NCBI GenBank assembly: GCA_947179485.1
Contig: OX359248.1
Coordinates: 31,629,378 to 31,693,377, forward strand
Length of the DNA stretch: 64,000 bases
Source of the DNA: Allacma fusca
Lineage: Eukaryota > Arthropoda > Collembola > Symphypleona > Sminthuridae
Direction of reading: 5' to 3'
The stretch's first letter is position 1. Each line of letters opens with the position of its first letter. The notes beneath the pieces were generated by a model that saw only the letters and a list, made by a program, of their open reading frames with translations, had not been told where the DNA came from and searched no databases. Positions 18,901 to 64,000 of this stretch are shown here, piece by piece. A program made the translations under genes and the position numbers.

Positions 18901-21751
18901 GACTGTGAGGATGAAGGACTCTTACACAACTGGAGGGCACTCAAAAGCTGCAAGATTCAAACTGATTCGGAGGATATGGGCGAGAAAGTAAAAAAAATCA
19001 TGGTTTCATGGTAGCTCTGCAGACCGTGGGACTAGAGCCAAAAATTGTCATCCTCCAACACAAGACTACACGAAGTTCACTCAAGTTATTTTTGGGTTCG
19101 CCTTTTCACGAACGAACAAAATGCTAATACGGTACTGCTTAACGTAATTCGTACATATCAGCAAGCATGTAACTTAGCCTCGTCGTGTATTTCAGCAGTA
19201 GCATTTGCGCACAAAAAAAAATACTTTTCGCAAATCGTCTTCCTTAATTTTAATCGAAATCAAATCTCGGCAAGATAACAAGTAAGCATTTATACTTCAC
19301 CTGCACCATCTCCAGATTTATGTCGTCGGAGATAAATTACAATTTTCCAACTCTGACTATTTGAATATATTAAGACTGATAAATGATTTGACACAATGTG
19401 TAATACTTGCAGGAACGTTTCACAGCTGAGTTCAAATCGTCAATAAAAAAGAGAAACCACTGAAGACCAGATGGATATTATTACTACAATAATAATACAA
19501 TCATAATCTTTGGAAAATTTCTACTTCCTACATCTCACAGGTAGTACGCATAACATCCTTTCTATCTTAAACGGATCAGCTCTGAATGCATGTATCATTT
19601 GATTTATTATTACTTTTTTAAAACCCTTTTGTACACAAATCCCATTATACTTGCTGATGAAATCCATTATCATGAGAAACGATCTGACATTTGTCTACGT
19701 CTGTATTGCTTACCTCTTGCAACGCTTTCTTATCAACAACTTTACCAGCCTGCAGACTACGGATTGCATTTCTTGCTCCATCAGCAACTGCTTTTTCAAT
19801 CCGAAGCCGGTGACGTAGCTCTTCAATTCGTACTTCCACAGGTGCAAGTCCATGCTGGTTATTTCGGTCTATAAAAAATGCAAGAAAATTTATCATTGAA
19901 GTATTCATAAACAGCCGTAAAATGAGCACAACATCAATTTTCTACTCCACAAAATAGAAATTGTTAAAAGGAAAAAGGATTAGGTAATAACTTATGAAGA
20001 CACATTTAACAAGGGGTTCTTTCTGCTCACTGTGCCTCAGCAAAAAATGTTTACGTCCTTACATTCAGAGACATATATCACATTTTAAAATATTAACGCT
20101 AACTCTGCAGATTTCTGGAGTTTCACGTCAAAAGCAGAAGAAATAAATGATTTTTTTCATACTGAACCTCATGTGGGCCATTAACATCCTCCCAATGGAA
20201 ATTAAATGGCACAAGTATCTCACACATTTTTTATCAACCAATCTAGGTGTGTAGGTTATCATTCATACAGATACGTCTACTGCATAAGTAAATGAACAGT
20301 TCATTTTCACATTTTGGGAACTATTTCAACTTGTTTAACTTGGGATAAAATGCCGAGTAAAAATTGCCCGGTTCTAAACCCTCAACTTTCATTACTCTAA
20401 TAGCGAACAGACAGTAGTAGAAGCGAACAAACACATTTTCAGAACGGGTAATATTCAGCATGTACGAGGAAAAAATATTGCCGTCCTTGTCCTAGCATAA
20501 AAACTCGATTCATTACCATGAAGTATGTGTATGCATGCCGTTTACACATAGATAAGATATACAAAATTGGTTAAGCATACCTTTATAGCGTCCGTCTCCA
20601 ACAATACCAGATCCAGCCACATTTTCTAATCTGCTGTGTTTCGCCTTGGCAATCCTCATTTTCAAATAGTCAATTTTAGCCTTGGAGTCTTGGAGCATTT
20701 GTTGAGCATCTGCGAGCAATTTTTTATCTCGACCGCTACTATAACTCTGTATCATATTCTCCGCCCCCTGTTTTACTTTTAATTCAATATTGAGCTGTTT
20801 TTCCAGCGATGAAATTCTCTCATCAAATGACGATAGATTTGAATTGTCTGCTGCATTAGATTTATTTACATCTTCTGGAACAAACAAACCCAAACATGTA
20901 AGGCACTTACAATGGATATATGTAAGCCTACACTACAACACTATATGACATATCACATTATTTTTGGTAACAGTATCTGCTCTCAGAAGTTCATCTCATC
21001 AAAAATAAATTAAGAACTCATTTAAGAAAATTCATATGCTGAATTCGTTTACGTTAAATCCTCTTGTACATTTCACTATCTCAAGTTCTCAAGATATCGT
21101 TAGGCAGGGAGTTGGGAGCAAAAGTAGAATTTATAATCTCCTTTTGAAACATTTGCATTGCGTTAGAAAATTCAAAGATACATAAATTTAAATTCCTACT
21201 AAAGTTAATTGCTACAGAAGTACTCTTACATGTCGTACACCATATATTTTTCTCTGTGAGAGCAATGGTACGACAGTTGAATTGTATTCACAATTAATCA
21301 GGTATTATTACATATTGTACCACCAAATGAGATTTTGTCATGTGAATAAAATAAGCATCACATTGAGGTGGAGAGAGAAATTGAGATTAAAATAAGGTAA
21401 TGAGTTCATCAACATACCATGACCATTATCTAACAAGGGGAGTCCACCCTGCGTGAGTATAATTTGTGAGTCTAGTTCTTGAAGTTCGGCTTGCATCTCT
21501 GAAAGTCGACTATTTGATTTTTTAACTAAAGCTGTTAGTTCCGCTAAACTTTTTCGGTCTGTAGTTACTTCCCGAAGTTTCTCCGCACCCTCTTTGATCT
21601 TCAACTCCTTCCTTATTAATCTTCTAATGTGCTCTTTCAGCTCTTCCAATTTGTGTGGGATGACTCCAGGGCCTCCACCATCCCCAATTTCAGCTGCGAT
21701 TCCATACTTATGGCTTAATTCATATAGGGCCGGATGAGCAATATATTCACC
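12764..21751 (-). CDS. Pkn: Protein kinase N, regulatory half (HR1 x3, C2-like, linker); kinase domain not in view
   Basis: Seven exons join in phase (21751-21418, 20874-20581, 19868-19714, 15756-15318, 13795-13542, 13381-13105, 12960-12764), giving 650 codons without a stop. Residues about 1-17 carry the arthropod Pkn lead-in [14 protein letters not shown]1a lies near 34-100 ([14 protein letters not shown]), HR1b near 122-190 ([29 protein letters not shown]) and HR1c near 215-290 ([16 protein letters not shown]). The C2-like domain starts near 360 ([13 protein letters not shown]) and continues through [14 protein letters not shown] and [18 protein letters not shown]. After it comes the family hallmark [15 protein letters not shown] and a Pro/Thr-rich linker. 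In the family, the HR1 repeats bind Rho/Rac-GTP and hold an AGC-type Ser/Thr kinase in check. No DFG or GRGHFGKV-type exon was seen to the left, so the catalytic part presumably lies beyond base 1 after long introns. The true first exon is uncertain (see 22351-22391). Confidence 0.95.
13105..13381 (-). CDS. Pkn: Pkn exon: end of C2-like domain and linker
   Basis: Acceptor tttgataacag, donor gtaatt. It opens with [20 protein letters not shown], the diagnostic Pkn segment, then [14 protein letters not shown], also conserved. After that comes a low-complexity [11 protein letters not shown] linker, which is expected to be disordered and phosphorylated. Confidence 0.92.
13542..13795 (-). CDS. Pkn: Pkn exon: core of the C2-like domain
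   Basis: Acceptor cacttttcag, donor gtatga, ending in phase 0. It encodes [34 protein letters not shown] and [13 protein letters not shown] followed by PQGLLFAE, each matching the PKN1 C2-like domain closely. The region is thought to bind lipid and regulate the kinase. It lacks the full acidic calcium-binding loops of classical C2 domains. Confidence 0.93.
15318..15756 (-). CDS. Pkn: Pkn exon: end of HR1c, spacer, start of C2-like domain
   Basis: Acceptor ttattttcag, donor gtgagt. A competing donor three bases upstream (gtagtg) would drop one residue and keep the frame. The exon encodes the tail helix of HR1c ([15 protein letters not shown]), a Ser/Pro spacer and the first C2 strand [20 protein letters not shown]. 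It ends in a [15 protein letters not shown] loop that aligns in kind with the GRSS loop of PKN1. Confidence 0.9.
16156..16670 (-). CDS. Nested unknown gene, exon 3 with Cys/His cluster
   Basis: Acceptor taccttgtag. The split codon G+AG gives [10 protein letters not shown]. It encodes the glycine/histidine segment followed by the CPCQHCRFH cluster and terminates with TAA after DKAHWK. No canonical poly(A) signal was noticed in the few hundred bases after the stop. Confidence 0.82.
16156..18737 (-). CDS. Unknown 763-aa protein nested in a Pkn intron
   Basis: Three exons (18737-17719, 17513-16756, 16670-16156) join in phase from an ATG to a TAA, giving 763 aa. The gene lies wholly within the Pkn intron between 19714 and 15756 and is on the same strand. 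The N-terminal third is Ser/Thr/Pro-rich with basic patches. It has a short ordered-looking start ([20 protein letters not shown]). The middle has [11 protein letters not shown] followed by an acidic serine run and [15 protein letters not shown]. Near the end of exon 2 is [12 protein letters not shown]. The third exon has [18 protein letters not shown] followed directly by PCQHCRFH, a compact Cys/His cluster (C-x-C-x2-C-x2-H) that could bind metal. No signal peptide or membrane segment is seen, so it is probably cytoplasmic or nuclear. I do not recognise the family. Dense, phase-consistent coding with good splice sites makes a real gene likely. Confidence 0.82.
16756..17513 (-). CDS. Nested unknown gene, exon 2
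   Basis: Acceptor cgtttttccag, donor gtacgc. The junction codon AA+A reads through as [19 protein letters not shown]. The exon contains the acidic Ser-rich segment, a possible helix [17 protein letters not shown], and [11 protein letters not shown] near its end. Confidence 0.82.
17719..18737 (-). CDS. Nested unknown gene, exon 1
   Basis: The ATG at 18737 begins [15 protein letters not shown]. The exon runs 1019 nt to donor gtaaat after HQQP plus two bases of Lys. It is mostly disordered, with many SP/TP sites and arginine clusters ([18 protein letters not shown]) near its end. Confidence 0.82.
19714..19868 (-). CDS. Pkn: Pkn exon: first part of HR1c
   Basis: Acceptor ttttttatag, donor gtaagc, phase 1 in and phase 0 out. 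It encodes [19 protein letters not shown] and [13 protein letters not shown], the start of the third HR1 repeat. The repeat finishes in the exon at 15756, on the far side of a 4-kb intron that holds another gene. Confidence 0.93.
20581..20874 (-). CDS. Pkn: Pkn exon: HR1b
   Basis: Acceptor tttgttccag and donor gtatgc, with phase 1 in and phase 1 out. The encoded [13 protein letters not shown] and [16 protein letters not shown] are near-identical to the second HR1 repeat of vertebrate PKN1, the most conserved of the three repeats. This makes the family assignment secure. Confidence 0.94.
21418..21751 (-). CDS. Pkn: Pkn exon: N-terminal lead-in and HR1a
   Basis: The acceptor is a T-rich tract ending in tag at 21752, and the donor is gtatgt. 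The exon starts in phase 0 with [17 protein letters not shown] and ends one base into a codon. It covers the whole first HR1 antiparallel coiled coil. The short DGGGPG stretch before the helix is a flexible spacer. Confidence 0.93.
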
Positions 21752-39300: not shown

Positions 39301-42300
39301 TGGTTGACTCAAAATTTTGTCGTTGACATCCAGTCATCCATTATCTATTTTTGAACGACGGTTTAAACGGAAATGAATTCGTTTTATGAAGGTTTCATTA
39401 GAATGCATGAGGCATCCCACATCACACACATAACCAGGAAAGTGTTCTCATAATGTTCCGACGACTGCAGTCTTACATATGGACGCAAATAATGTGATAA
39501 TAAATTCGTAATTAGTAGAATATCCGGATGAGAGAACCGCAAAGATGGCCTCAATAAAAATTGCATCGAGCTGTCTATACAAAAGTTTATGTGGGGGTTA
39601 CAAGGCTGTGGATCTTAATGTGCTATGCATATATTGAGCGTAATGCGTGACTTTGATTGACATTACAAGTCGCATCTCTATCTCTCCCCCTCTCTCTCCC
39701 CGTCAGAAAATTTACAAGGAAATTGGTTCTTACTAAATAACGAGATATATTTACAGTATAGTATTAATTATTCCACATGTTATCATGTGTGACCAACTTG
39801 TGAATGAATTGCATAAACTTTGCTGTATGAAATAAGCAAAATGTAATTACTAATATGGAGGAGTCACTACTACTGTATTTATTATTTCTATCTAATAATA
39901 AATAGAGGAATGTACCCATCATGAAATAAGCAAACAGTTTCCGACCCTTTGATGTAATATTCGTATTGAATAAAATTATATTAGCCATGCGTAGATACAT
40001 CTAAGAAATTATTTTGATACTCCAGCTTTAAATTCTGGAAAGAAAACATCTCTAAAGATTACAAAAAAATATGATGGAAGTGTATAATATCGTTAGAAAT
40101 TTTCAGGAACATTTTATCCAGTGAAGAAAAAACTTCTCCTGGAGCGTATGTATCCATTTGTTATTAGATTAAACATTGGCAATAGCTCAAAATAATATAC
40201 TTCATTCCACACCTCACTGAACTTTAACGGAATGTAAACTACTGCATCTGCATTCTGGAATTACCATGACGTGGGTGTGGGGTAAAGTAAAGACAATATC
40301 CTTTGTGGGTAAAATTTCACGCTCAGCAAATTCCTAAAAGACGAATTTGTTTGTAATTAGCAAGATTATCCTAGCATAGCTAATTTTAGGAAGTGCACAA
40401 GAGTGCAAGTAAGTAAAAGTGACTTTATTACCCTAATTAATGTGCAGACAAGGTCAAAAAATGCAAGAATGCGTAAATATTTGTTTAAGCTGGATCTAAA
40501 AACTCAAGTATGTTTATGTGGAGCGGCATTAAATTCCAAGTTCCAGGGAAATGAAAGGAGTGCCGGCGTCCCCGCCACTTCCTATTCCATTCCAAAGTTC
40601 ATCACACTCTTTCAATATGTACTTCAATAATTATTGACATTTTTAAAAGCAAGCGGGTAATGAATGGAAATTAAATGGTAAATTCTATTTACAATCTTGC
40701 TAACTTACAGTTATTAGTAGCGTACCTACATACAAGCTTCAATGTAGTAGCAAATTATTACAATAATTACTACCAGTAGTAATACTTGTTTTTGACAGGG
40801 AATGAGTCAGAGTAAATCTTTTGCTCTTTCATCGTACACTACTGATTCTGGCTGACTTCATTCACCAGAAGCCCCTATTCAAATTAATATGAGCTGGGAA
40901 AAATAGTTCGAAATATGTGAGCAGTTTGGAACGACATACTTTAAATGGTCTGAAGTCTGAGTCTGAACTCCATCTTAATATACCATCAACGGCTGACAAT
41001 GTTTACTCTTGAGGTTTCTAATGACATCCACTTACACAATTAGTTTAGATACAAGCTGTTGCAGTTCCTCCTGCACTGTCTCCTTTAAATCTATTTTAAA
41101 TTCCAGCATATGTCCAGGAGGTAGTGTTTTCTCTGGGTGAAAACTATGCAGTTTTTTTTTATTTTCTTAGTGCAACCAATTTATTTTATGTGGTCTGCTC
41201 ATAAGTTATTGACTATAAGTATTTTTTAAACCAATTTCTCGAGCGTTGAGTCCAATAACATAGATTAGCTAGACTTAAGAATTCTATTGGAATTAAAGGG
41301 TAAGAAAATAAATTAAAACTTGACTCTGTTCAGACAAGCTTAATGTTTTTTTTTCAGAGGGGATAGTAGAAACTGTATACAAATCTGCTTCGACCTTTAG
41401 TAGAAACATCATGAAACGACAATTGACAGCATGTCACCGACAGGAAGCATTAAAATGTGCATTTTTACATTAAATAGCTCCGACGCTATCTATTGATTTT
41501 TATTATGTTTTTCAAAACGTGCTGGCTGTCACACACAACCCGTGATAATAATAGATCCTGTGGGGCATGACAAAAAAAATGAGAATAACGTGTAGTTACA
41601 TTAGTGTCGTGTAGGTGGGTAGTAAAAACAGATTTTTAAAGTCCTATTTTTGGAAGACAGTTAGCTCTGATAGGGAATGTCGGTTAAGTCAACATAGCCA
41701 GCCTATATGGGGCATGCTTTAAGGGAGGGGCGCTTTTGTTTAGTTTAGGTGTATTTATTCACCTGAGGTAATCGTTCAGTAAAAAGTCATCTTTGCTGTA
41801 AAAACATGGATGATTTGATAGCTTATTGTTAGCAGTCATCACCATCACAAATGTATCATGTACAACACATTTATGCAGAGTAAACTTAGGGCAAGGCATG
41901 CTATGTACTACTAGCACCTTAAAATGTTTTTGTGGGACTGATGGCAATGTTTACTGTTGTATTTATCAAAATGTTACTCAAAGAAAGGGATGAGAGATTT
42001 TTTTTTCTCACTGTACAGCATTGTTAATTGTGGTCCTCATATGCGTCCACTTCTACAGATAGCATATTGCCTGAGAGCGTCTTCCTGTTTGATTTGCGAG
42101 CCAAGAAGTGTTACATGCACCTGTCATGCAAATAATATTAAATTAATGTCTTGTATGCAAATTTAATCTCGAAAAGGAGATTCAGTTCCACTAACGTGAC
42201 TTTGTTGTATGGTTCACAGATATTTTACGGTTAGAGTAAGTACACCAATAGTAACTGAAGTTCTAAACCTTTATTCTTAAAAAATTCAAGAACGAAATCG

Positions 42301-48300: not shown

Positions 48301-50642
48301 TTGAAGAAATTGGGTGTAAGGGCTTCTAGCTAACTCGACAAGAACAAATAATTTTTGTAGAGATCCATTGATGGCACTAGTGGTTATTAAGTGAAAATAC
48401 AGTTAAATTTTCATGGAAGAAATTTACAAAATATTTTTGATTATTACGGAGTCAAAATCTAAGATTTAGGGAATAATAAACGTACATTTTAAATCACAGT
48501 TAATCTTCGTGCTCCATCTGCCATATACATACATGTTATTTTGAGGAAAGCATTAGTTGTAATATAATCAGTGATATGACGTTTCGTGGAAGAGCTTTAT
48601 AGCATTTTGTATAAATATGTATTTGCTAGCATATGTATAAAAGCCATAAATAGCATTAATGTGCTTTCCTGGAAATTCTATAAACATACTGACAGTGGGT
48701 ACAGATACAAACAGGGAACAAATTGTATACACTATTTGTTTGTACTCCCCCGAATCAAAATCAGGCCTATATAAAATCAATTTTCTCTTTAATTGACAGG
48801 AAAAATTTGAAAGACATACTGATTTTGCATTTCATTGAATCATCTTCCTCTAAAAATGATATAACTATGCCAATGGGTCAACTCACTCAGGACTGGTTAT
48901 TTGAATAATAGAAGCACAACATCTTGTTTTGATTCAATCCATCAATCCTTTTATGGTTTTGCGTTCCATGCGTCACGGAATGTCATCCTCGCATTTTCAA
49001 TCCTAGCATAAACAACATTTCAAGTCTTACACTCTCTGTTTCTGAAAGAATGTTCGATGAAAAACACCTTTATAACCATAACCTGTTTTCAGGGAAACGG
49101 AAACACCTGCTAGTTTTACTTCATACCGAGAACACGCAAATTTTCCTTTTGTATCAAAGGCATCAATACTTTCTTTTAAGTTACACAACAGAGCCAGATT
49201 GTGAGAAGTTAGCATGTGGGAGAGTGAGCACTTCCTTGTAGTATAGTAGTGAGATGAAGAATCGATGCATGTTACCTGTCATGTCACTGGACTCCACCCA
49301 CACATTTTGTCCCCGGTTAGATCATCATCACTGGCAAAATCAATTTTGGAAATGTTTGGAATTTTATCAATCAACAGGCGCTGTCCTACTGAATCGTAAT
49401 TTACGGTACACTTTGTACGCGCTTATTGTAAGTATGCACGCACTTGTATAGAAAGCATTTATTCCTCAAAATCATTTAAGGTAGGATTAATTGGGCCCAC
49501 TTAGAATACATACTTGGTCAAATATGTAAATTTGTCCCTTATTATTTAGCACATATAACATTTACATTAATAAACCCATCAGTTGCATTTTATTTAATGT
49601 GTATTTTGGAATTGACAATGCTTCATACTTCTACAAATAAAAAATCACTCGATAGTCTCGAACACGAATACTCGAAAACGTCTATGGTAAAAAATATGGA
49701 AGGTAATTATTCTCTATTGGTTTATTTATACAGTATTATTACTTTATTTTCCTACTTGTTATCACTCATCAGTTTTATTTATTTTTACCACGGGAGTTGA
49801 GAACTTTTCAACTGAAAGAATTTAATTGACCACTTGGGGAAAGACTGTTTCTACACGGACTCCTTGTATTAGCTGGAAGAATATATTTCTCGAGAATATA
49901 GACCCTGTTTAGAAAGAACTAAACAATTATGACATATCTACATATAATTATATAAATATGTACAAACATACTTTCTTCGTACTCAACAGTGAAGGTTGGT
50001 CTTGGCATGGGATATACATATTATTTCCTGTTCCGGGGCCTAAATAACTTTGTACTTGCGCTTTTTAAGTGCTTTAGTATGTATGTACATGGTGTTAAGA
50101 TCACAGCCCAACAATCAGATTACCCTTTCTTACAACACATACATTTCTGTATTAATACCTGAAGCTATTGTAAGTATGTACCTTCGTATATAGTGATAGC
50201 ACTAATGTTTTAATACTGTGTTCACGTTAATATAATTATGCATTAATCATGTACATTAAAGATGAGCACGACATTTTAATTGCTCAAGATGATGGAAGGT
50301 GAGCTTTCTAGAACAAATACCAATGATACAGTGACGTGTGTCCGTCTCTATATCCTGTTCTATTTTAAGTACGATATGTTTCCCTTGTAAAAGCACTACG
50401 ATGAGAGGATTCCACTATTTTCTTCTTATTAAAAGTTGAAAAGGTCCTGTTTCATGAGACACAATTAAGGTAGGCTGGGTGAAGGAAAGAAATTGAACTG
50501 TGAAGTTAGTGATGGTTGTAAATACTTATATTATGTTTATACTACATAGGTGTGGGCGTTCGGGCTGTCACCGTACTTCTCGGGGAAGTGTAATTAATAG
50601 CAAAACTCAGGAAAATTCAAGCATCAGACAAAGACAAGTCCA
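36331..50642. other. Gene-poor stretch
   Basis: No gene with matched splice sites or a recognisable domain was found, apart from the isolated ORF at 44758-45159. The upper strand tends toward T and G. Some of it may be 5' intron or regulatory sequence of the plus-strand peptide gene at 50643. Confidence 0.45.
44758..45159 (-). CDS. Isolated 133-aa ORF, unknown
   Basis: A real ATG opens MELNSHPINIEFVLVRLPIG, and the frame runs to a stop after RSGHISS. Residue use is balanced rather than low-complexity (YEKFLRIYVRLAQTTTSENP). An acceptor-like ctgtgccttag immediately precedes the ATG, so it may be an exon. No signal peptide, domain or neighbour gives a role. It could be a decayed mobile-element fragment. 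Confidence 0.22.
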   Translation of the reverse strand: MELNSHPINIEFVLVRLPIGQTHSSWSNNQGIRCDTYSPSNTRGNFDEDTESYTIMYEKFLRIYVRLAQTTTSENPSYIIRIPSHANCSLHILLQTSSMRILILPYDSNSKRRLNFGEVIEYGVNIRSGHISS

Positions 50643-51050
50643 ATGAAGGGGGACTCATCCATCCGGACCGCTGACGTTTGCATTCATCGGCAATGGCGTC
50701 CCTGTGGGCTTTTAAAATGTACCCATTCACTCGTCGTGGTCGTCCTTTCCCTGCATCTTCTGATTTTCATGTCTCGTGTAGTAGAAGCTGAGGAGGGTCT
50801 GGGATCAAACCCGAATCTTCGTCAAAGGTTCTTGCAACATGGGGAGTCCGACTACAGTGCGGTGAATGATGGAACGCGGTTTGAGACCGCAGGTGGATCG
50901 GGATACTTTAATGTTGAAAAGCCTGTCAAACCTTATCTCAACTACCTGGCTGCGAGATTCAAGGGAATCGGGGAAAAGCAAATTAATTTGCAATCTGCAA
51001 ATGACGAGCCACCTTCAGCTTTGCGCACTGGACCCGCTGTAATTAACACG
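50643..51050 (+). CDS. Peptide precursor exon 1: signal peptide and propeptide
   Basis: 136 codons ending AVINT. The propeptide includes GYFNVEKPVKPYLNYLAARF, with no dibasic-Gly motif. If the intron is retained the frame continues 19 codons (VRFYKLQPPRLRKRFRSDD) to a stop. That would give a protein lacking the amidated peptide. Confidence 0.75.
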
Positions 51051-51442
51051 GTAAGATTTTATAAATTACAACCACCGAGGCTTAGAAAAAGATTCAGGAG
51101 TGATGATTAAAGTTACACTGAATCTCTATCTACTAATATCTATTCCATTTGAAATGGATTAAAAAAAAAGCATGGCATGAAAAGACTTTTGTATTTCGGC
51201 TTGTTTCTGGTATCATGGAAAGGAACGTACATGTTGATTAAAATTTTGCTCCTTTGTAATTACAGGTAAGGTCCAAGAAGGGCTTCAATGCTATCAAATC
51301 CTTAATGGGATTGCAATCAAGATCCTTGTCCAGGTCCATATCCATGGCACGGTCAATGTCTACCGAAGACTTTGTTGAGCCCGCTATTCAGACAAGACGA
51401 ACTCTTACGAGACAGTTTCGACCAAGACTTCGTTGGGGTTAA
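50643..51442 (+). CDS. Secreted neuropeptide-type precursor with C-terminal RPRLRW-amide, two exons
   Basis: The exons are 50643-51050 and 51266-51442, joined in phase 0 (donor ACG|gtaaga, acceptor ttgtaattacag), giving 194 aa. The ATG follows an in-frame TAG about 45 bases upstream. Residues about 29-46 are a hydrophobic signal segment (SLVVVVLSLHLLIFMSRVVEA) after a long basic N-region. Cleavage is likely near VEA|EEG. The body is polar. At the very end is QTRR, then TLTRQFRPRLRW, then Gly and the stop. This is a dibasic cleavage site followed by a peptide with a Gly amide donor. The expected product is a 12-residue peptide ending RLRW-amide. That ending is shared with some insect short neuropeptide F peptides (for example KPQRLRW-amide). 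The rest of the precursor is not recognised and only one copy of the peptide is present. The secreted-precursor reading is strong. The sNPF link is inference from the C-terminus. Confidence 0.75.
51266..51442 (+). CDS. Peptide precursor exon 2: amidated peptide
   Basis: 58 codons and a TAA, in phase 0. It opens VRSKKGFNAIKSLMGL, then a run of arginine-serine steps (SRSLSRSISMARSMS), a short acidic spacer and the terminal RR-TLTRQFRPRLRWG. All recognisable bioactive sequence is in this exon. Confidence 0.75.
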   Translation, partial: VRSKKGFNAIKSLMGLQSRSLSRSISMARSMSTEDFVEPAIQTRRTLTRQFRPRLRWG

Positions 51443-51735: not shown

Positions 51736-51940
51736 AATAAAAGTCGACAAATTTCTGTACACATGTACATTCAGATCCAAGGTGAATCTCATTGTCAGTA
51801 TTGTAAACAACAATTTCATCTTCACCTGTGTGGAAGTACATTTACGGCTAATATTTATTCAACTGAACACATAAAATGTAATGTTGTGAAAATATGTAAT
51901 TACGTGAAAAAAATAAATAGACATGCAAGTAGCAAATAAA
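51736..51940 (+). promoter_or_regulatory. Candidate poly(A) signals of the peptide gene
   Basis: AATAAA occurs at 51736-51741, 51912-51917 and 51935-51940, about 300-500 bases after the stop. Which one is used cannot be told. Confidence 0.4.
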
Positions 51941-54286: not shown

Positions 54287-54570
54287 CTAATTGACTGCTG
54301 AGTATTTTGACTTGTTATCCGATTTCTTGCCAGATTTTTGATTTGACTCTGAACCATCATTCTGTGCTTGGGATTTGTCCCCGAGAGCTTTGCAGACCGG
54401 GATTGAATTCGACCACTTGCCATTCTTGAGACAGTGCAGCATCCTTGCACCTTGAAGCTCATAGCCTTCGGTGCAGTCGAAAGTGACTGTCTCGAGGATT
54501 CCATAATAGAATTTTACCTGGGAAATCGTACCACCGATCGTAGTTCCAGGATACGTGCAGGCCTGCACAC
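54287..54570 (-). CDS. Sushi gene exon q: last sushi domain and C-terminal tail
   Basis: Acceptor atttggatag. Encodes ACTYPGTTIGGTISQVKFYY, VTFDCTEGYELQGARMLHCL and NGKWSNSIPVC. A hydrophilic Lys/Ser/Asn tail follows, ending KYSAVN and a stop. No membrane anchor or GPI signal is seen, which supports a secreted protein. Confidence 0.93.
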
Positions 54571-57500
54571 CTATCCAAATTTCAAGTAGATTTACAATCC
54601 ATTTCACTCACAATTCCAAATATATGAGACATGTTGAGAGTGTTCAAAAAGGAAACTATTTACATTTGACTGTAGATGCTCGTGACCATTTCCCATTATC
54701 CTGACACGCTACGATGGGCTGACCTTCCATCATATACCCTTGGTGGCAATCAAACTGAGCCAAATCCCCCGCTTTGTATGGAGGATTCCCCGACACAAAT
54801 CCATTCTCCGGGGACGCCGGCTCAGGACACTCTACTTCCCGACACAGTGGTATGGCACTATGGCAAGGTTAATCGAAATATAATTTACAACTTTACCAAC
54901 TTCCCTTACTCTAGGTCAGGGTACTCATGCTAATAGTAATTATAGCTTAGAAAAGGGACGTCAATGGGGTGGATGTGCCTTGAAGATAATATGCTGCTCC
55001 TAAGAATACATTTCCTCGCATGAATACAACAAGCAGCATATTTTCGGCAAATTTATATACACTTAACATTTTGAAGTTCCCTTTCTAAAAAAAAAATCCG
55101 TACGTTCGGGATGGGTTTATTGTAAAAAAAGAAATTGTAATGCTGTGAGGTAATATTAAAATTCCATACCTAGACCATTCACCGTTGGATTGACAAATGG
55201 CCTCATTACTACCCTGAAGAATGTATCCCGGTGCACAAGTGAAGATGGCTTTACCACCAACGTCCCGATTAATGACGGTAATTTTTGGTGGGGCAGTCTC
55301 GTTTTTCTTGACGGTACCGTTTTTGCTCACGCTTGTGAACTGCAAGGGGGCCATTGCAGGGAGTAGAGAAATATCCGCACATTCCACATTCTCACATCTA
55401 TTTAAAATAAAATCCTCCTAAATAAATACTTGTGTCTGTGATAAGCATATCTATAGGTATTTTGTATGCAGGCAGGAAAGTAACCAAATTTATCACCAGT
55501 GCGAAATCAATGTAAGGAACCTGGAAATGTGGAGGGACAAGGAAAGTCAATAAAAAAACTTGACTTACTTTGGAAGCAGAGCAGACCAATTTCCAGAGGC
55601 AAGACATACAATTTCTTGCGCTCCAACCAACGCATTTCCACTGCGACACTGGAAAGTTACTTTAGTCCCTAGCTGAGTGTTGGTTGTTGAGTAGTTTACA
55701 TCCGGATGCTCTGGTAATGGGCGACAGTCGACAGCTAAAAAAGAACAAAGTCACTGGTGAGAGTCAACTTGTCATAAAATATAAGAGATGTCATGTCCTG
55801 GGTTCCAACGTACTCCTGACGCTTCAAGATTACGTCTAGTTTTATCAACCCTACATGTATCTATATGTATTTATGGATACTGTGAATAAAAGTGAACTCA
55901 CTTTTCACCAAAATCTGAACCCGGTGCCTGTGCCGGGATGGGGTGACACATGTGTAGGAGCCAGAGTCCTCATCCTGAGCATTGTCAATTGTGAGTCGAA
56001 ACTCCAGAGAGTTATCTCTGCCTTCTTCTGCAGGGGCCCAGCCCTCCTTGTAGTTTCTCCTCAGGTAATCCGGGACCGATCCTGCTTCCTTGTCTTTATT
56101 GGCTTCCTCTATTTTCCCTTCCCGCTCCCTAAAGAAATAAATATCATCATGGAAACGGAAGAGACGCAACAGCATGCTCATTTTAAATCGTGAATTGCCT
56201 CCACGATCAGTGTCCCTATTGTTCCAGGGTAGTGTCAGGAGCTATTAAGGCTTCCAACGAAAAATGTCATCTAAGTTCACGGGTTGAGATCCCGGGGGGG
56301 CTTAGTTGGACGCAACCCGGAAAAATGGAATTTGACTTCAATGGGACTGGGGATTCCTTCCCACTGTATCTATTTTTCCCCTGACCACTCAGAAACATGA
56401 GAGCCGCTGTGGGGATTTAGGATGGCCCCGCAAAACCGGAGTTCTCGGAGATAGGGCCAATCATTAGACATTATATTATGAAATAATGAACTCTGGAAGG
56501 CCTAAGGGTATGTATAAGATATGAGCCCCCGCCCTTGACTGTCGCTTGTAAATCCTCAAGTGTTTATTGAGTCATAAACAACGTTATGCTATTAAACACA
56601 GGATGCTACACGCTAGGGCAATCCAAATAATACCCTCTACATAAAACCACTGGAGCAAAAGCACTGGCTTAAAATATTTTGAATGTAGAATAAGGCTATA
56701 AAATATCAGATAAAATCTTGAGACTTGAGTGGAAAATTTTAAGACAAACTAAAGGAGGTAGATTCAAATCTGATTACTTATGCGGGTTTGAGATCTCCCA
56801 TTTAGGAGTGCCGTATTTCCGAATCCAGAGACATTCCATGTGGAGGGTTGTCCCGGTGTAAATGACAAGTTTCCCGTCGTTGCTCTGAATCATGGAGCCA
56901 TTCACGTACCGGAACAGGATCGTAGGTGGCTTATCCACTGCAATAGGAAAACACATGTGGTTTTTATTCGTAAATCTTCCTCCTTCCATGGAACTACAAC
57001 TATTTACACCTGGGATGTTTTTTTTACAATAACTTTGCAATAAAATTAACCGGAGCGTTTCACCAGGGTTTGACTTCCCTCAAGATTTTCCTCTTCGAAT
57101 GCTTTTTTCCCAAGCATGGGTTTCATACCCATACATTTAATATTTTGACAGAGGGTTCTTCTAAACTAGGAATTATGGCTGGAAGAATTTGCTATTCTAT
57201 ATTTACATAATATACTTATACTCCATTATTTCGTACGCATAAATCTAAAGGCTAGTTCATATAATGGGTTCCCTTGATTCAGTTCATACACAGATATACT
57301 ACCAATTTAGTATTTATGGATATTTTGTTGCTCAGATTCTAATACCCAGATTACTTCTGTGCCGAGGGGTCCAACCAATATATTTACTTTACATTATGAG
57401 CAGTCAAGTTGAATCGTTACTTTCGAAACGGCACTCCCTTTAACTTATAGAATTATTAATATTAACTACACATACTTTCAAGACTTCATTCCGCAGATCA

Positions 57501-60500
57501 ACAAAGACTTTTTTTTCTCTCTTTTTTATTAATCATTATGGGAAATTTGTGAAAATAGTAAGGCACACGGAGATGTGTATATTTTGGTTTCGTTAGTCAA
57601 AACTATAAAGTTCTTGGATGTACATACTTGGTTTTAAAATGCTTATTGCCCTTTTGAAGTCCATTATTTTTGCTTTAACTTTTGTTGCAGTCTTAAATAT
57701 AATAATAATTATTATAGTAACTGTAAGTTTCCTATGCGTATACTTAAAATAAAAAATGTTATTAAGAGGGAGCTCGTATTTAAGAAACTAAAGCTTTAAA
57801 TTCATGAAATCCAGAGTGCGATTCTTCTCAACCTTCGTACTTGGTAGTCCCATTCAGTTCAAACTTAAATCGTTAGCATGGAATAGGAATGACGCGTATC
57901 TCATGCTAAGAAACCTTGACTGGCTCAATTCTGTACATGATACTCTGACCCGAATGTGAAGCTACCATAAAACTACTTAACAATTCAATTAGAAAAAGAA
58001 GTTGGAGAGAAACTACCCTCCCAGTGACACTCCACAGGGGAGCCGCATATTTGGCTTATGCATGAGAACCGACCCAGAACAGACTTCACACATTCACCGT
58101 TACAACAGTATGAATAAAATTTCAGCTACAAGAAACATTCTGGCGCGGTGCCTGGTTTTCCCGCATTTATTGGGATAGAAAGCAGTTGTAGATTAAATGA
58201 GAGCCTGGAAGTTCCTACAATATACTCCCACTACAATGGACCTCCTCATAATGCCCATTTATGTATAATGGCACTAATTTTGAAGCACATCCCCGATTAG
58301 AGAAACGTTACTTCCTCTCCATGCTTACAAGAGCGGTATATTAAAAGAATCATATTTTGATGCTTTTAGGACTGCTCTAACGGGGAGAGTTCACTGTACA
58401 ATGCATAAGAGGCAGGAGAGAGAAAAAAAGGTAAGCAGAAGGAAATATTCCTTACGAGCATAGTCGTTTTGCTGAGAATTTCCAACGCATTTTGGGCTTC
58501 TTCCGAGCCAAAGTCCAGAAACGCACTTACGGTTAACATTCCCAGACATTTGGTACTTGCCAATATCCGCACATCGAGAAATCTAGAGATCAACAAAAAC
58601 GAATTGTACAGAGAGCGTTCCAAGGAGTAAATGACTACTTGGAAGTGGAAGTGACTGTGCCAAAGCCTCTGAAGCTCAACCCGATCATTATAACTAAACC
58701 AAGGCGGACTTAAAATGAAGAGGATGGGAATAAAAGGAGCAGGGAATAATATGGGAATAACTGCATAATAGTTGTACTTGTTGTATACTATTGGGGGGAG
58801 GGGAAGGTATACTTGTTCGTCCCAGTCATAAAAAGAGGCTAACGAGCAGGGCAGACATAACATGTAAGTATGCATCCGTACAAATTGGCAATGAGTATTG
58901 GAACCAAGTCAATAGAATGTAATGGAATAAAATTAATGAGAAATTAATGAAGCGTGTTGTGAAATTGGTGGGGAAAGAGGCACACCAAATTAGTTCCCGA
59001 TGGGAAATCAATGGTATCCTTCACAAGTTGCTGGTCATTGTAGAAGGTAGCCACAATTTCCTCATCCTTCGTGTAAGTGCAAGATCCATTGATCATTTTC
59101 AAGACACTCGTCATATTTTCCACTGGGACGTCTCCATCTGTAAAGAGAAAGGACTTTTGAAGAAATCTACACCACACTCTCACCATTTCTCATATCCCTT
59201 TACCTACAAATAACCCCATCCTATATTTTTCTTCATATGTTTAAAAAGTCTCTTTTGAATAAAATACTTGAATCTATTCCCAAATCTTTCCTCACTCAAA
59301 TTTCCCATATATATATATATTTTCTCATGAAAAACGTGATTACCATATTTTAGAGCCTGATGGCGGCACTCCCCTACAGGTTTCCCGAATCAAAAAACTC
59401 TTCTACAAGTTACCCCAAATTTCCTTCCCATTCCCATTTTTCCCTTCCTAATGACTGTCATTTATTTGAGAGAGGTACAAACGACTTTTTGTTTCCAAAA
59501 GGAAAAATGTTGCTTACCGCAAATAATGGGGGTCCCCACCCAAGTCCCTTCTTCACACGTCATTTTCCATCGATTCTTTTTGGGCTTGATGAAACCACAT
59601 CTGTACACGATCTCCGTACCATCTGCAAAACTGGATCAGAAGTGACAGAGTTAACTAAGATTACTCAGGGGATCTTTCCTATTGTTATGCCTTGATGGGC
59701 TGGAGAGATCCACTTTATTGTAATCACTAGTACTTAATTATTACAATGGGATGAGACTGCTCCGACAGTCACAGAAATTAATAAGTTTCTAGGAAAAAAA
59801 AATTTCGCCTTTGAGGTTTCAATGGAGAAAGTAAAGGTGAAAGTAGGTGAAAGTACGGAAGATTAATGCTCCTCAGAAGAATAGGACAAAAGGAGGAAGT
59901 CAAACCTAATGTCAAAGTTTGCATCAATGGGTACTCCCTCCATGTAAATGAAAGCATTTTTCTCCTTCGGTGGAGCCGGGCAGGATTTTTTGGAGACAGC
60001 GAGGAGCGGAGATCGAGATGAGCCCTTCCTCTTCCCGTCTTTGTGATCTCCGTAATAATGATCCTGATCTCCGGTGGCCATGGTATAATTCAGTGTCACT
60101 GACGGGTGAAGACACATGGGCTTGTTGGGTTTAAAAATGCCCAAATGACAGCGACTGGGACCTTGAACCATTTTCTTAAAATCTCCCGTGCAAGCGTAAT
60201 CAACCTAGCCGTACAAAATCTTATGGTTAGATACAAAAAAGAGCATGTGTTTGTAAGTATCCCATTTATTGTTAGTGCAGTATGTTACAAAAACAACAAT
60301 AGACGTCGGCTGTACTTTTAAAGGCCGTCACTACAAAAAAGTTTTGCTTTTTTTTTATCCTCGAATGAGTCCACATGTATACACAATGTATGTATGTCAT
60401 ACCAATGGTAACTCCCTGGAAGAATTATTTTACTAACTCGCATGCATGTGTGTGGGAGTGTGTGGATGTGGATAAACAGAGGGAATGAGAGGAGTGCATT

Positions 60501-63500
60501 TCAGAATGGAAATGCCGCGTGTACAGTCGCTTTTTTCATTCTGTAATGAATACAGGATTAGAATATGTGTAAGGACACTAAATAGACTATAGTTGTAGTA
60601 ATCAATGCAAATTACCTCCGTTCCATGGTTTATGGTCATACCGACGCGGTATCCACCGACATAACTTCCGTAGTCGATCGTTGGCAGCATGCACGTCCCT
60701 GCTCGCAGGAGGGTAGACAAAAACAATAGTTAGCATTTTGGGGCAATATGTTAACTCCAACATCTGTGATGATAGGATATACAGTACTAGGATGGAGCTA
60801 CTCGCAAAAAAAAATCCTATGCAGAAAAGTATTTAACAAACTTCAGAAAACACGCATCCTGTAGACTAGAACCAAGCCTTCAGTAACAGCAAAACATAAT
60901 AGGAATAGTTGGCTTCTGGCTGGGCCTCTCTTATTTTAGAAACTAAATGTAACTTGAACGCTTCTATTTTCTAGGGATAAACTCATTGTACCCCACCGCA
61001 GCAAAGTGCTGCGGTTAGAATGAGTAGAGAAAGCCTGCGTGAATTAAGAGCTCCCAGCAAATGCCCAACATGACACCTTCAAGTGATGGCATACTTGCTT
61101 GTATTTTACTCAGCATAACCTCAAGCATGCCTGTCCCTAAGGGAAACTTATATGCGTTATAATTAAATCATTAATAATAAATACTACACTGGAAACTTGT
61201 TTGAACTAATTGTTTACATAAATTAAAATAGTATTGTTATGGACAATGTGGGAGGAGGTGATTTTAGAACCTCAGAATGGAAGGACACTTGAGTGCAGGT
61301 AAGAAATTCTATTAAATGGACATGACAAAAAAAAATTACCAGGCACACACTCCGGAATGTCATCAACGTCCCATTCACCATACCAACAAACCATACGCTT
61401 CGAACCCCGTAACACATATCCCCTGCTACATTTCACATAAACATTCTTCATATGCTTGGCAGATTCCATGAAAAACAAGGCTTTCGTCCCGTTCCCATCG
61501 AACAGAGTCCCATGAATGATGTAAGGTATCTTGCAAGGTAGAGCATTGCCTGTATGGAAATAAATAAAAACTTTATTAAATATTTAAAACAATTTTAAAA
61601 AATTCCTCCAGCTGAGGAACACAAGTTAATCAAATTTTGAGGGATTTGGGTGGATTTGATAACAGGTAATTATAATTTGATTGTAAATGGGAAATCTGTA
61701 TTTGTATTATTGAAATTGGTTAAGTAAATTTACTCACACTGTGGTACTTTTGGTTTCCATTTCCCCTGAACACACCGCACGGTCTCATTGGGTAAATTGA
61801 CCCCAAATCCATGAATACAACTAACTTTTAGGAGTGCTCCGGAAGAGAATTCAGTCGCATTTTCATCGTCTCCAGGAGTAATCACTTCTTTCTGAATGTA
61901 CTCATTCTCGAGGGGATCGCAGAAGGGCGGTGCTACACGGGATGCAAAAAAAAATCGAACTTTAGGTATTGGGTTTCATTCCAACAATAAAACTTGATAT
62001 TTTGAGCTCCAGTGATGGTTTACAACCAGGAGCAATTCGTAATAAAAAAAAAACAAAAACGCAGGAAATCACACGAACGTATGCTGACATTACTGAGACG
62101 GGACCTCAGTTATATCTACTCGTAGATAGATATACTTACATACATAGATAGGTACACATATGTATATGGAAATATCCACGCACCCATATCATAATCATCA
62201 TCATCTTTGTTAGGATTTTTCTTCTTTTGTCTCCTGGTTCCAGGGGCACCTCCACCTCCTCCTCCTTTATTACGCAACAAGCTCCCGCCACCCGACTTGA
62301 TAGCCCTCCGCTTCCTTCTCACCCAGCGAAAGCTCGGGTGCTGACTGGGAATACACCTATTTTCATCAATGTTTATGTTACGATTCGAACATTCCAACTT
62401 GTTCACGTTTGTAAGCTTCAGATCAAAATTTCACTTTCAAGGAATTGCCTTTGTATGCAAATTGTAAGTACTACACCTCTGAAGGTACTTTTCCGTCCGG
62501 AAGCCACTAGGAAGCTGGAATTGTTTGAGTCATAGAAACTTTACATATGTACAGTCTGCTCCCTGTATAATAGCAACCCTACATGGAGCAAAATTTAGCT
62601 CCCAGAAAGCCTGACTTTTATAAGGAGAAAATAGCATTGACCTAGATCAGAATGTGTGTACAACTTGGTGCTCCTGTGGAAAAAGTCCTTTTATCAGGAG
62701 ATCTTTCGTAGGGAGAGTATATTGTATTTGATATATTTATCTCGTGCACATAGCTACATAATGGTTATCCGTTTTAGTTGTGTGCTGTATACTGTACTAA
62801 AATTCCGTGGAAAATATTTGGATACAAAGGCTATGGTGGGTAAAGGTAACTTGCTGGATTATCCAGCACACTATGAATACCAAATGAAGTACCTTGGTGG
62901 GTCAGTTTTGGGTGCCCATTCACCTCGAATGCATGTTTTCCCTTGTGGACCATCCGCGAGCACGTAGCCCTTATCACACTCAAACATGATCTGACGGTTG
63001 TTCGCCACTTTGGTAACGTAATTACGATAGTCGTAGAGACCCATGTTCCCAACGAGGAGAACTCTTCCGTGCTCCGGCGGTGGTAAGTATTTGCAGTAGG
63101 TTATCTACAGTACCACAAATTAATTTCATAGATTAATCCACCCTTGGAAATTGTTTCCATTTATAGTCATTAGCAATCCATTAGCGGGGTTTTAGGGGAT
63201 TTTAATCATCGTAACAGTAAATTCTAATGGATTACCTGACACGTGGGAGGATCACCCCGCCAAACACCGTACTGACATTCGGTCACATTGTTACCAATGA
63301 GGATGTACCCATCCCTACAAGTGTACCTAGCCTTCATACTATGCTCCGTTTTTGGAGCAATCACCATCCCGTGCCGGGGAGGTTTCGGAGGTGATTTGCA
63401 TCGAGCTGTAGAAAATTCCAGTATAAAATTCAGATTGAGTTCTGACAGGGTATAAAGCATATGGGTTACATCACAAAAGTAACAAAACTGGAGGAGACCC

Positions 63501-64000
63501 CCGTTCATCCAAAAATAATGAGCTGTGCAATGGGATTATGAGATTTGAGCTGGAGGGAAGAACCTCTTAGAAATTCTGAATTCTAAATTCACTCCGAAGC
63601 CCTTCCGCTATATTTCATTGTCACATCCTCCCCGTAAGGAAAATGAAGAGAGAATTTTGTAGATAGATGTGCATTTATGGAGATGAGGGAAATAATATGT
63701 GAGGAGGTGAGGCAGATGGGAAGTTTATGTTTAAAGGGGGGAAAATATCTGGGAAGAAATTATACCTGGCTGGCATCGGGGAGCATGAGTCCAAGATCCG
63801 TTATTGCAAGTTGACGGTGTAATATTGTACGTTGGTTCGTAATGTTTCTCGCATTCCACTCCAATCATTCTTCCATGAGGGACTAACGTCCCAGGTTTCA
63901 ACACAATCGTTGACTGAGTTAAAGTGGCATTACCTGACTCCGGCTCTTTGGGCTTCTCCGAGAATCCATGATTAGGTTTCTCAGTCACATTTCCAAAGGA
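54287..64000 (-). CDS. Secreted multi-sushi plus Ig protein, hikaru genki / Hasp / LEV-9 type (5' end outside window)
   Basis: Seventeen exons join with consistent phase, giving 1052 aa to a TAA. The protein start is missing. In order come: a sushi (CCP) domain cut by the window edge, then sushi 2 (CKSPPKPPRHG, residues about 80-135). Sushi 3 (YCKYLPPPEHGRVLLVGNMG, to about 210) is followed by a basic/Gly-rich tail with WVRRKRRAIK (about 215-263). Three more sushi domains then precede SCPAPPKEKNAF...IIC and an atypical sushi ending KYQMSGNVNRKC (about 564-655). An Ig domain follows (LHMECLWIRKYGTPKWEIS to DEDSGSYTCVTPSRHRH, about 660-762). Four more sushi domains and a short Lys/Ser-rich tail complete it. 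The family is secreted into the synaptic cleft and clusters acetylcholine receptors or their partners. I recognise the family firmly, but which of the Drosophila relatives (hig or the Hasp gene) is closest needs a search. A WAP domain, if present, would lie in the missing 5' part. Confidence 0.92.
54664..54857 (-). CDS. Sushi gene exon p: sushi domain
   Basis: The acceptor is accttgccatag; a nearer gaagtag would break the frame. Donor gtaaat. Encodes AIPLCREVECPEPASPENG, AQFDCHQGYMMEGQPIVACQ and NGKWSRASTVK. Confidence 0.91.
55170..55397 (-). CDS. Sushi gene exon o: sushi domain
   Basis: Acceptor attttaaatag, donor gtatgg. Encodes KCENVECADISLLPAMAP, FTCAPGYILQGSNEAICQ and SNGEWS, with two NxT/S sequons in the longer first loop. 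Confidence 0.92.
55569..55734 (-). CDS. Sushi gene exon n: sushi domain after Ig
   Basis: Acceptor gttcttttttag, donor gtaagt. Encodes VDCRPLPEHPDVNYSTTNTQ, VTFQCRSGNALVGAQEIVC and ASGNWSALLP. The last Cys comes from the next exon. Confidence 0.93.
55902..56059 (-). CDS. Sushi gene exon m: second half of Ig domain
   Basis: The acceptor is tacctgag, with an alternative AG three bases further that drops one residue. Donor gtgagt. Encodes NYKEGWAPAEEGRDNSLEFR and DEDSGSYTCVTPSRHRH. The D-x-G-x-Y-x-C signature is clear. Confidence 0.92.
56059..56936 (-). other. Intron with a GC-rich patch at about 56280-56470 (span overlaps exon l)
   Basis: The intron itself is 56060-56777. Within it a short patch is much richer in G and C than neighbouring introns. 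It does not carry an open frame in phase with the flanking Ig exons, and a possible tRNA-like T-arm was not supported. Confidence 0.3.
56778..56937 (-). CDS. Sushi gene exon l: first half of Ig domain
   Basis: Acceptor tcctattgcag, donor gtaatc. Encodes DKPPTILFRYVNGSMIQSND, KLVIYTGTTLHMECLW and IRKYGTPKWEI. This includes the first Ig cysteine and the core Trp. Confidence 0.92.
56938..58455 (-). other. Intron of the sushi gene
   Basis: The largest intron of this gene in the window, 1.5 kb. It lies just before the Ig domain. No further exon was recognised. Confidence 0.7.
58456..58582 (-). CDS. Sushi gene exon k: atypical sushi, end
   Basis: Acceptor gttgatctctag, donor gtaagg. Encodes ISRCADIGKYQMSGNVNRKC, VSGLWLGRSPKCVGN and SQQNDYA. 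The NDYA end leads into the Ig domain, as in arthropod relatives. Confidence 0.87.
58986..59137 (-). CDS. Sushi gene exon j: atypical sushi, first part
   Basis: Acceptor ttctctttacag, donor gtgtgc. Encodes GDVPVENMTSVLKMINGSC and TFYNDQQLVKDTIDFPSGTN. It has two N-glycosylation sequons. Spacing differs from normal sushi domains. Confidence 0.85.
59518..59630 (-). CDS. Sushi gene exon i: second half of a sushi domain
   Basis: The acceptor is cacttctgatccag. The nearer ttttgcag would break the frame. Donor gtaagc. Encodes FADGTEIVYRCGFIKPKKN and WKMTCEEGTWVGTPIIC. Confidence 0.86.
59906..60204 (-). CDS. Sushi gene exon h: end of one sushi, start of the next
   Basis: Acceptor gtacggctag, donor gtttga (weak), phase 0 to 2. 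Encodes VDYACTGDFKKMVQGPSRCH, a charged linker (DGKRKGSSRSP), and SCPAPPKEKNAFIYMEG. Confidence 0.86.
60616..60698 (-). CDS. Sushi gene exon g: first half of a sushi domain
   Basis: A short 83-nt exon, acceptor tcctgcgagcag, donor gtaatt. Encodes TCMLPTIDYGSYVGGYRVGM followed by TINHGTE. The domain is completed by the next exon. Confidence 0.88.
60981..61025. other. Near-perfect stem-loop in an intron
   Basis: Inner arms CCGCAGCA (60996-61003) and TGCTGCGG (61007-61014) are exact reverse complements around a 3-base loop. Outer arms ACTCATT (60981-60987) and AATGAGT (61019-61025) are also exact reverse complements, with an asymmetric internal loop between. The GC-rich inner stem stands out from its AT-rich surroundings. 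It lies in the intron between sushi gene exons f and g. Confidence 0.7.
61340..61549 (-). CDS. Sushi gene exon f: sushi domain
   Basis: Acceptor tttccatacag, donor gtaatt. Encodes NALPCKIPYIIHGTLFDGNG, VYVKCSRGYVLRGSKRMVCW and YGEWDVDDIPECVPG. Confidence 0.92.
61738..61932 (-). CDS. Sushi gene exon e: sushi domain
   Basis: Acceptor catcccgtgtag, donor gtgagt. Encodes FCDPLENEYIQKEVITPGDD, LKVSCIHGFGVN, and VRCVQGKWKPKVPQ. The closing Cys is split across the intron (T|GC). Confidence 0.91.
62184..62356 (-). CDS. Sushi gene exon d: last Cys, basic furin-like site and poly-Gly linker
   Basis: Acceptor gatgaaaatag, donor gtgcgt. Starts RCIPSQHPSFRWVRRKRRAI, then a Gly/Lys-rich stretch and an acidic DDDDYDM. 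It is unlike any other exon of the gene. RRKRR fits a proprotein-convertase site. Confidence 0.88.
62893..63104 (-). CDS. Sushi gene exon c: sushi domain
   Basis: Acceptor tggtactgtag, donor gtactt, phase 0 to 2. Encodes YCKYLPPPEHGRVLLVGNMG, IMFECDKGYVLADGP and KTCIRGEWAP. The last Cys comes from the next exon. Confidence 0.93.
63236..63405 (-). CDS. Sushi gene exon b: complete sushi domain
   Basis: Acceptor ttttctacag, donor gtaatc. One whole domain: RCKSPPKPPRHGMVIAP, ARYTCRDGYILIGN, TECQYGVWRGDPPTCQ. It has the four cysteines and the Trp. Confidence 0.93.
63766..64000 (-). CDS. Sushi gene exon a (partial at window edge)
   Basis: Open to the edge. It carries N-glycosylation sites (NVT, NAT) and the sushi half GRMIGVECEKHYEPTYN...GSWTHAPRCQP. 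Donor gtataa, ending in phase 1. Confidence 0.88.

What the first reader, a model, noticed from the sequence alone, without database searches (positions are those of the whole stretch)
51266..51442. A probable new amidated neuropeptide ending RPRLRW-amide
Seen: a signal-peptide precursor whose last exon ends RR, TLTRQFRPRLRW, Gly, stop. This is exactly the layout of a peptide cut at a dibasic site and amidated. Known: some insect short neuropeptide F peptides end RLRW-amide. Inference: this is an sNPF-like or novel RLRW-amide peptide of this lineage, with a single copy at the precursor C-terminus, unlike the multi-copy insect sNPF precursor.
Basis: partly seen in the sequence, partly recalled or inferred. 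Interest (0 to 1): 0.75.

Follow-up and report, generated by a model that had tools for sequence, protein, structure and literature searches.

The report
Springtail gene for candidate RLRW-amide neuropeptide
A genome that matches a springtail carries a well-formed gene, found once, that looks like the precursor of a small amidated signalling peptide ending RPRLRW, apart from the animal's ordinary short neuropeptide F gene; whether the peptide is made is not yet shown.

Summary
In detail: exon 1 (ATG 50643 to 51050) and exon 2 (51266-51442) join through a 215-base GT-AG intron into a 194-aa precursor ending RR-TLTRQFRPRLRW-G-stop. Composition and codon usage support coding, well for exon 1, moderately for exon 2. 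The genome matches the springtail Allacma fusca in size. Each exon was found once. sNPF orthology fails: a canonical sNPF exon (SQRSNSLRLRFGKR) lies on the same chromosome and does not align with this precursor. Single copy is no oddity: sNPF is simple in hemimetabolans and most beetles. The nearest described layout is HanSolin (single C-terminal peptide, mostly GQPLRW-amide); shared are position, basic cleavage and LRW-amide, not the consensus core, the basic site after the Gly, or the length. Most likely this is an amidated-peptide precursor of unassigned family whose RLRW tail is convergent with fly sNPF; a diverged HanSolin is the leading rival. Expression, and conservation in other springtails, could not be tested.

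The parts
50643..51050 (+). coding exon 1: start, signal-like region and N-terminal propeptide (136 aa)
   Evidence: open frame and donor ACG|GTAAGA; coding score 0.22 in the proposed frame, best of six; GC 49.5%; only match in the genome is itself
50643..50789 (+). probable signal peptide; hydrophobic core LVVVVLSLHLLIF (50730-50768); inferred cleavage after VVEA
   Evidence: Kyte-Doolittle maximum 3.0 over 13 residues; cleavage by the -3/-1 rule (recalled); no signal-peptide predictor was available
51051..51265 (+). intron, 215 bases, phase 0
   Evidence: GTAAGA donor, TTTGTAATTACAG acceptor; GC 31.2%; not supported by any transcript
51266..51442 (+). coding exon 2 with the C-terminal peptide and stop
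   Evidence: coding score 0.156, best of six frames; only match in the genome is itself
51395..51400 (+). dibasic cleavage site RR
   Evidence: direct reading
51401..51436 (+). predicted mature peptide TLTRQFRPRLRW-amide ([M+H]+ 1628.961); a second cut after TLTR would give QFRPRLRW-amide (51413-51436; 1157.680, or 1140.654 with pyroglutamate)
   Evidence: direct reading; masses; processing inferred
51437..51439 (+). Gly, amide donor, directly before the TAA stop (51440-51442)
   Evidence: direct reading
51736..51741 (+). AATAAA, nearest possible polyadenylation signal
   Evidence: by consensus only

Best explanation
This is a gene, found once in a springtail genome (Allacma fusca by assembly match), that encodes a 194-aa secreted precursor. 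The signal peptide would send it into regulated secretory vesicles; a prohormone convertase would cut after RR, perhaps also after the Arg of TLTR; the C-terminal Gly would be turned into an amide, releasing TLTRQFRPRLRW-amide and/or pyroGlu-FRPRLRW-amide as a neuropeptide or hormone that acts on a G-protein-coupled receptor. Shown here: sequence, frame, splice signals, coding composition, no second copy found, a separate canonical sNPF exon. Inferred: secretion, cleavage, amidation, signalling, receptor. The family is unassigned; the RLRW tail is most simply convergent with the RLRW-amides of fly and mosquito sNPF precursors. The one strong sNPF-receptor candidate of the genome is a reasonable first receptor to test.
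For: Open, spliceable two-exon frame with RR...RW-G-stop; coding composition and codon usage; hydrophobic core near the N-terminus, spacer SMSTEDFVEPAIQT of net charge -3 before the +4 peptide; AATAAA about 300 bases after the stop; no other match of either exon in the genome; no Pfam family and only one insignificant PDB match, E 0.27, which fits a neuropeptide precursor but does not prove one; separate canonical sNPF exon.
Against: No transcript, no peptide mass, no relative in another species. 29 residues before the hydrophobic core and a weak start context. 31 of 1576 windows from presumed intergenic DNA score as high as exon 2. The tail motif arises in about 1% of shuffles, 3.2% in its loose form, and two other segments of this window show it (42142-42234 + and 6506-6622 -, not examined further). 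Gly directly before the stop, with no basic residue after it, is the less usual layout (recalled).
Confidence: 0.58

Rival explanations
1. It is the strongly diverged HanSolin gene of springtails: same layout (one peptide at the C-terminus, Arg cleavage before it, ...LRW-amide).
For: HanSolin is always C-terminal and single, flanked by R or (in some orders) RR, 8-16 aa long, with C-terminal consensus GQPLRW-amide in most polyneopteran taxa but significant variation within several orders, and precursors that diverge greatly (overall 0.83) (PMC7179676, passages); an 8-aa form is in aphids (PMC13302288, passages). The 8-residue product QFRPRLRW-amide would fit that size.
Against: The consensus core is absent (RPRLRW against GxPLR[W/F]); no RR, KR or R after the Gly; 194 aa against 88-139 aa in Polyneoptera and 121 and 117 aa in two beetles. 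Whether another, canonical HanSolin gene exists in this genome was not tested.
Confidence: 0.16
2. A small secreted protein that is not a peptide precursor; its C-terminal RPRLRWG is incidental.
For: The tail motif arises in about 1% of shuffles of this Arg-rich exon; long, doubtful signal peptide; no conservation data.
Against: The RR, the acidic spacer, the basic peptide and the terminal Gly occur together at the very end of the reading frame.
Confidence: 0.15
3. It is an old, strongly diverged duplicate of the sNPF gene.
For: Shared C-terminal RLR[F/W]-amide; Drosophila sNPF-3 and -4 and mosquito sNPF genes predict RLRW-amides (PMC2569041, passages); a few duplicated sNPF genes, of scattered occurrence, are reported for basal hexapods (PMC4770511, passages).
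Against: As ortholog it is excluded by the canonical sNPF exon at C12:21398860-21398976. No BLASTP alignment at E <= 100 with the 80-residue frame of that exon; the sNPF query matched nothing else in the genome at E <= 10; honeybee and Tribolium sNPF genes predict no RLRW-amide.
Confidence: 0.06
4. Chance open frames, no gene.
For: No transcript evidence was available; exon 2 is only moderately supported.
Against: Composition, frame scores and splice signals and a 169-codon open frame in 36.7% GC DNA.
Confidence: 0.05

Closest known systems
HanSolin (Carausius and other insects)
   Same: one peptide at the C-terminal end of the precursor, basic cleavage before it, LRW-amide
   Different: consensus core GxPL not there, no basic site after the Gly, longer precursor
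short neuropeptide F (sNPF), RLRW-amide type of flies and mosquitoes
   Same: RLRW-amide C-terminus
   Different: no alignable sNPF precursor sequence; a separate canonical sNPF exon exists in this genome
pyrokinins (FXPRL-amide)
   Same: contains the letters F-R-P-R-L
   Different: two residues (RW) follow before the amide, so the pyrokinin amide end is not there; resemblance recalled, probably incidental

Membership tests
amidated neuropeptide precursor (general) | signal peptide | tested here: inconclusive
   hydrophobic core present but 29 residues before it; no predictor available
amidated neuropeptide precursor (general) | basic cleavage site, then peptide, then Gly amide donor | tested here: met
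   RR-TLTRQFRPRLRW-G-stop
amidated neuropeptide precursor (general) | expression and processing in neurons or endocrine cells | not testable with these tools
   no transcript or peptidome data held
sNPF | C-terminal RLR[F/W]-amide | tested here: met
   motif as
sNPF | similarity to the sNPF precursor of the same genome and to the region upstream of the peptide | tested here: not met
HanSolin | C-terminal G-x-P-L-R-[W/F]-amide | tested here: not met
   R-P-R-L-R-W against the consensus, which also reports significant variation within several orders
HanSolin | one peptide at the C-terminus, R or RR before it | tested here: met
HanSolin | basic cleavage site after the Gly; precursor 88-139 aa (Polyneoptera) | tested here: not met
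   Gly then stop; 194 aa
HanSolin | no other HanSolin gene in the genome | not tested
   one search did not complete and was not repeated

The most novel reading that the evidence does not exclude
Springtails have a separate RLRW-amide peptide system, not derived from the sNPF gene, whose ligand converged on the sNPF core and may share, or compete at, the single strong sNPF-receptor candidate.
Probability: 0.2. Interest if true: 0.6.

Novelty: new member of a known kind. Interest (0 to 1): 0.38.

Why it matters
If the peptide is made, springtails have an RLRW-amide outside the sNPF gene. That bears on receptor sharing and convergence, and on method: an antiserum to PQRLRW-amide is used to mark sNPF cells in arthropods (PMC11350653 and PMC2569041, passages) and could label this peptide too. 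It may also turn out to be the springtail end of the HanSolin family.

Tried and rejected
sNPF orthology was rejected. Pfam gave 0 families at E <= 10 and the PDB one match at E 0.27. The scan of viral contigs with exon 1 gave 38 pattern hits, 0 confirmed; no arthropod collection besides the window's own genome is held, so conservation could not be tested. No paralog of either exon was found (at E <= 0.001, at E <= 10). Intron retention would end VRFYKLQPPRLRKRFRSDD at 51110, not amidated; its 19 intron codons score -0.024, too few to judge. The resemblance to pyrokinins (FRPRL) was set aside as incidental.

Literature: RPRLRW in 0 papers; RLRW in 59, of which 40 were listed, most of them unrelated by their titles; QPLRW in 3, two of them on HanSolin. 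HanSolin is in 9 papers; I saw passages of 8 and did not open PMC12194362. Of the 20 listed of 21 papers with springtail and neuropeptide, only PMC4770511 surveys springtail neuropeptides, judged by titles and abstract starts. Of no paper was more than passages, abstract and outline seen.

Receptor survey: 164 candidates, 150 scored, 85 matches at E <= 0.001; one at 68% identity, the other 84 at 45% or less; 20 loci were fetched and 7 looked at (L014-L019, L028). Naming L015 and L017 RYamide-receptor-like and L016 NPF-receptor-like rests on recalled motifs.

One search failed on a file name and was redone; one search printed nothing and was redone another way.

Full report
What is there. The + strand holds an open frame from 50601 to 51110 with its first in-frame ATG at 50643, a consensus donor after 51050 (ACG|GTAAGA), a consensus acceptor before 51266 (TTTGTAATTACAG) and an open frame to the stop at 51442. 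Spliced, it gives 194 aa ending ...STEDFVEPAIQT-RR-TLTRQFRPRLRW-G-stop.

Is it a gene. GC is 49.5% and 46.6% in the exons, 31.2% in the intron and 33.9% after the stop. A codon model was trained on 14 exon-like frames (2176 codons) of this window; 8 of the 14 were given to Pfam and 5 matched at E <= 0.01. Under it the proposed frame is the best of six in both exons: 0.22 for exon 1 and 0.156 for exon 2, within the 0.074-0.363 of the training frames, which were not held out. No stop-free 87-codon window of 255 from presumed intergenic stretches, which also served as the background, reaches the score of the exon 1 propeptide (0.289); 31 of 1576 overlapping 58-codon windows reach that of exon 2. 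Exon 1 is therefore well supported and exon 2 moderately. Each exon has one match in the genome, itself (at E <= 10, at E <= 0.001).

Weak points. The hydrophobic stretch LVVVVLSLHLLIF begins at residue 30, which makes a long signal peptide; no AG lies between 50647 and 50780, so splicing from an upstream exon could shorten the N-terminal region only slightly. The start context is poor (recalled rule). The tail motif alone does not decide: it arises in 0.96% of shuffles of exon 2, 3.2% in loose form, and in 3 of 7415 stop-ended segments of the window, this one included.

Organism. The genome has 392,743,791 bases in 91 contigs and a 14,936-base contig carrying COX1 with what I read as the usual arthropod order of mitochondrial protein genes (genes named by eye; ARAGORN found 1 tRNA). 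This matches Allacma fusca, 392.8 Mb with a 14.94-kb mitochondrial genome (PMC10427803, abstract and passages); the paper counts 95 scaffolds, not 91. The species is an inference from these sizes.

Not the sNPF ortholog. A query with the Drosophila sNPF region (from memory) finds one place at E <= 10, C12:21398860-21398976 (E 7.9e-6), whose frame reads ...GPIVPRAFPNHHMMRKSQRSNSLRLRFGKRSGDNS...: a canonical sNPF peptide, one copy in that exon; the rest of the gene was not traced. BLASTP between the 80-residue frame and the window precursor gives no alignment at E <= 100. The receptor query finds one place at 68% identity (C5:27406753-27407085, L014), the next three at 41-44%, which by recalled motifs look RYamide- and NPF-receptor-like. 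So one sNPF exon and one strong sNPF-receptor candidate stand beside this further RLRW-amide candidate. RLRW-amides are predicted from sNPF genes of Drosophila and mosquitoes, not of honeybee or Tribolium, and those of Drosophila (sNPF-3 and -4) were reported as not liberated from the precursor (PMC2569041, passages); convergence is therefore the simplest reading of the tail. Against it: occasional sNPF duplicates of scattered occurrence are reported in basal hexapods (PMC4770511, passages), so an old duplicate cannot be excluded.

HanSolin. The closest described layout is HanSolin: single, always C-terminal, after R or in some orders RR, mostly ...GQPLRW-amide but with significant variation within several orders, precursors of 88-139 aa that diverge strongly (PMC7179676, passages; PMC13302288, passages). 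Shared: position, basic cleavage, LRW-amide. Not met: the consensus core, the basic site after the Gly, the length. It is therefore not filed as HanSolin, though a diverged ortholog is the leading rival. I saw no statement on HanSolin in springtails in the passages of 8 of the 9 papers that name it; the one survey of springtail neuropeptides (PMC4770511, 2016; passages, abstract and outline) does not list it.

How it would work (inferred). Secretion, cleavage at RR, possibly a second cut after TLTR (an Arg at -6 fits the recalled rule for monobasic sites) and amidation would give TLTRQFRPRLRW-amide and pyroGlu-FRPRLRW-amide, acting on a G-protein-coupled receptor, the sNPF receptor being the first to test.

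The first set of odds added up to more than 1, and the report of sNPF duplicates had been left out; the best explanation went from 0.62 to 0.58, HanSolin from 0.17 to 0.16, non-peptide from 0.16 to 0.15, sNPF duplicate from 0.04 to 0.06.

Verdict. A credible amidated-peptide precursor of unassigned family, found once, in what is most probably a springtail; new member of a known kind.

Noticed in passing
window 13539-21751 (-): Exons with HR1 repeats (three matches, one above Pfam's cut-off and matching PKN in the PDB, 1cxz, E 4e-11) and a weak C2 match: probably a protein kinase N gene.
   Followed up: partly
window 54290-63535 (-): Sushi-repeat exons (two above Pfam's cut-off; those further on judged by eye) and a sub-threshold Ig match; the layout recalls hikaru genki (recalled, not tested).
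   Followed up: partly
G000 C12, C5 and C8 (L002, L003, L005-L009): Eight of nine COX1 match rows, at seven places, lie on chromosome-size contigs: mitochondrial DNA seems to have entered the nuclear genome several times.
   Followed up: no
L012 1501-1617 (C12:21398860-21398976): Canonical sNPF exon of this genome, SQRSNSLRLRF-amide, with Asn where Drosophila SPSLRLRF-amide has Pro.
   Followed up: yes
L015 and L017 (C8:14909538 and C8:48461793): Two very similar receptor exons 33.6 Mb apart, RYamide-receptor-like by recalled motifs: perhaps a duplicated receptor.
   Followed up: no
G000, many contigs (for example C8:30284309, C10:65802451, C5:49204225): 17 of the 85 rows of the receptor search lie in open frames of more than 1000 codons (up to 3651), mostly with nearly the same weak score; they look like copies of one large repeated family rather than ordinary receptors.
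   Followed up: no
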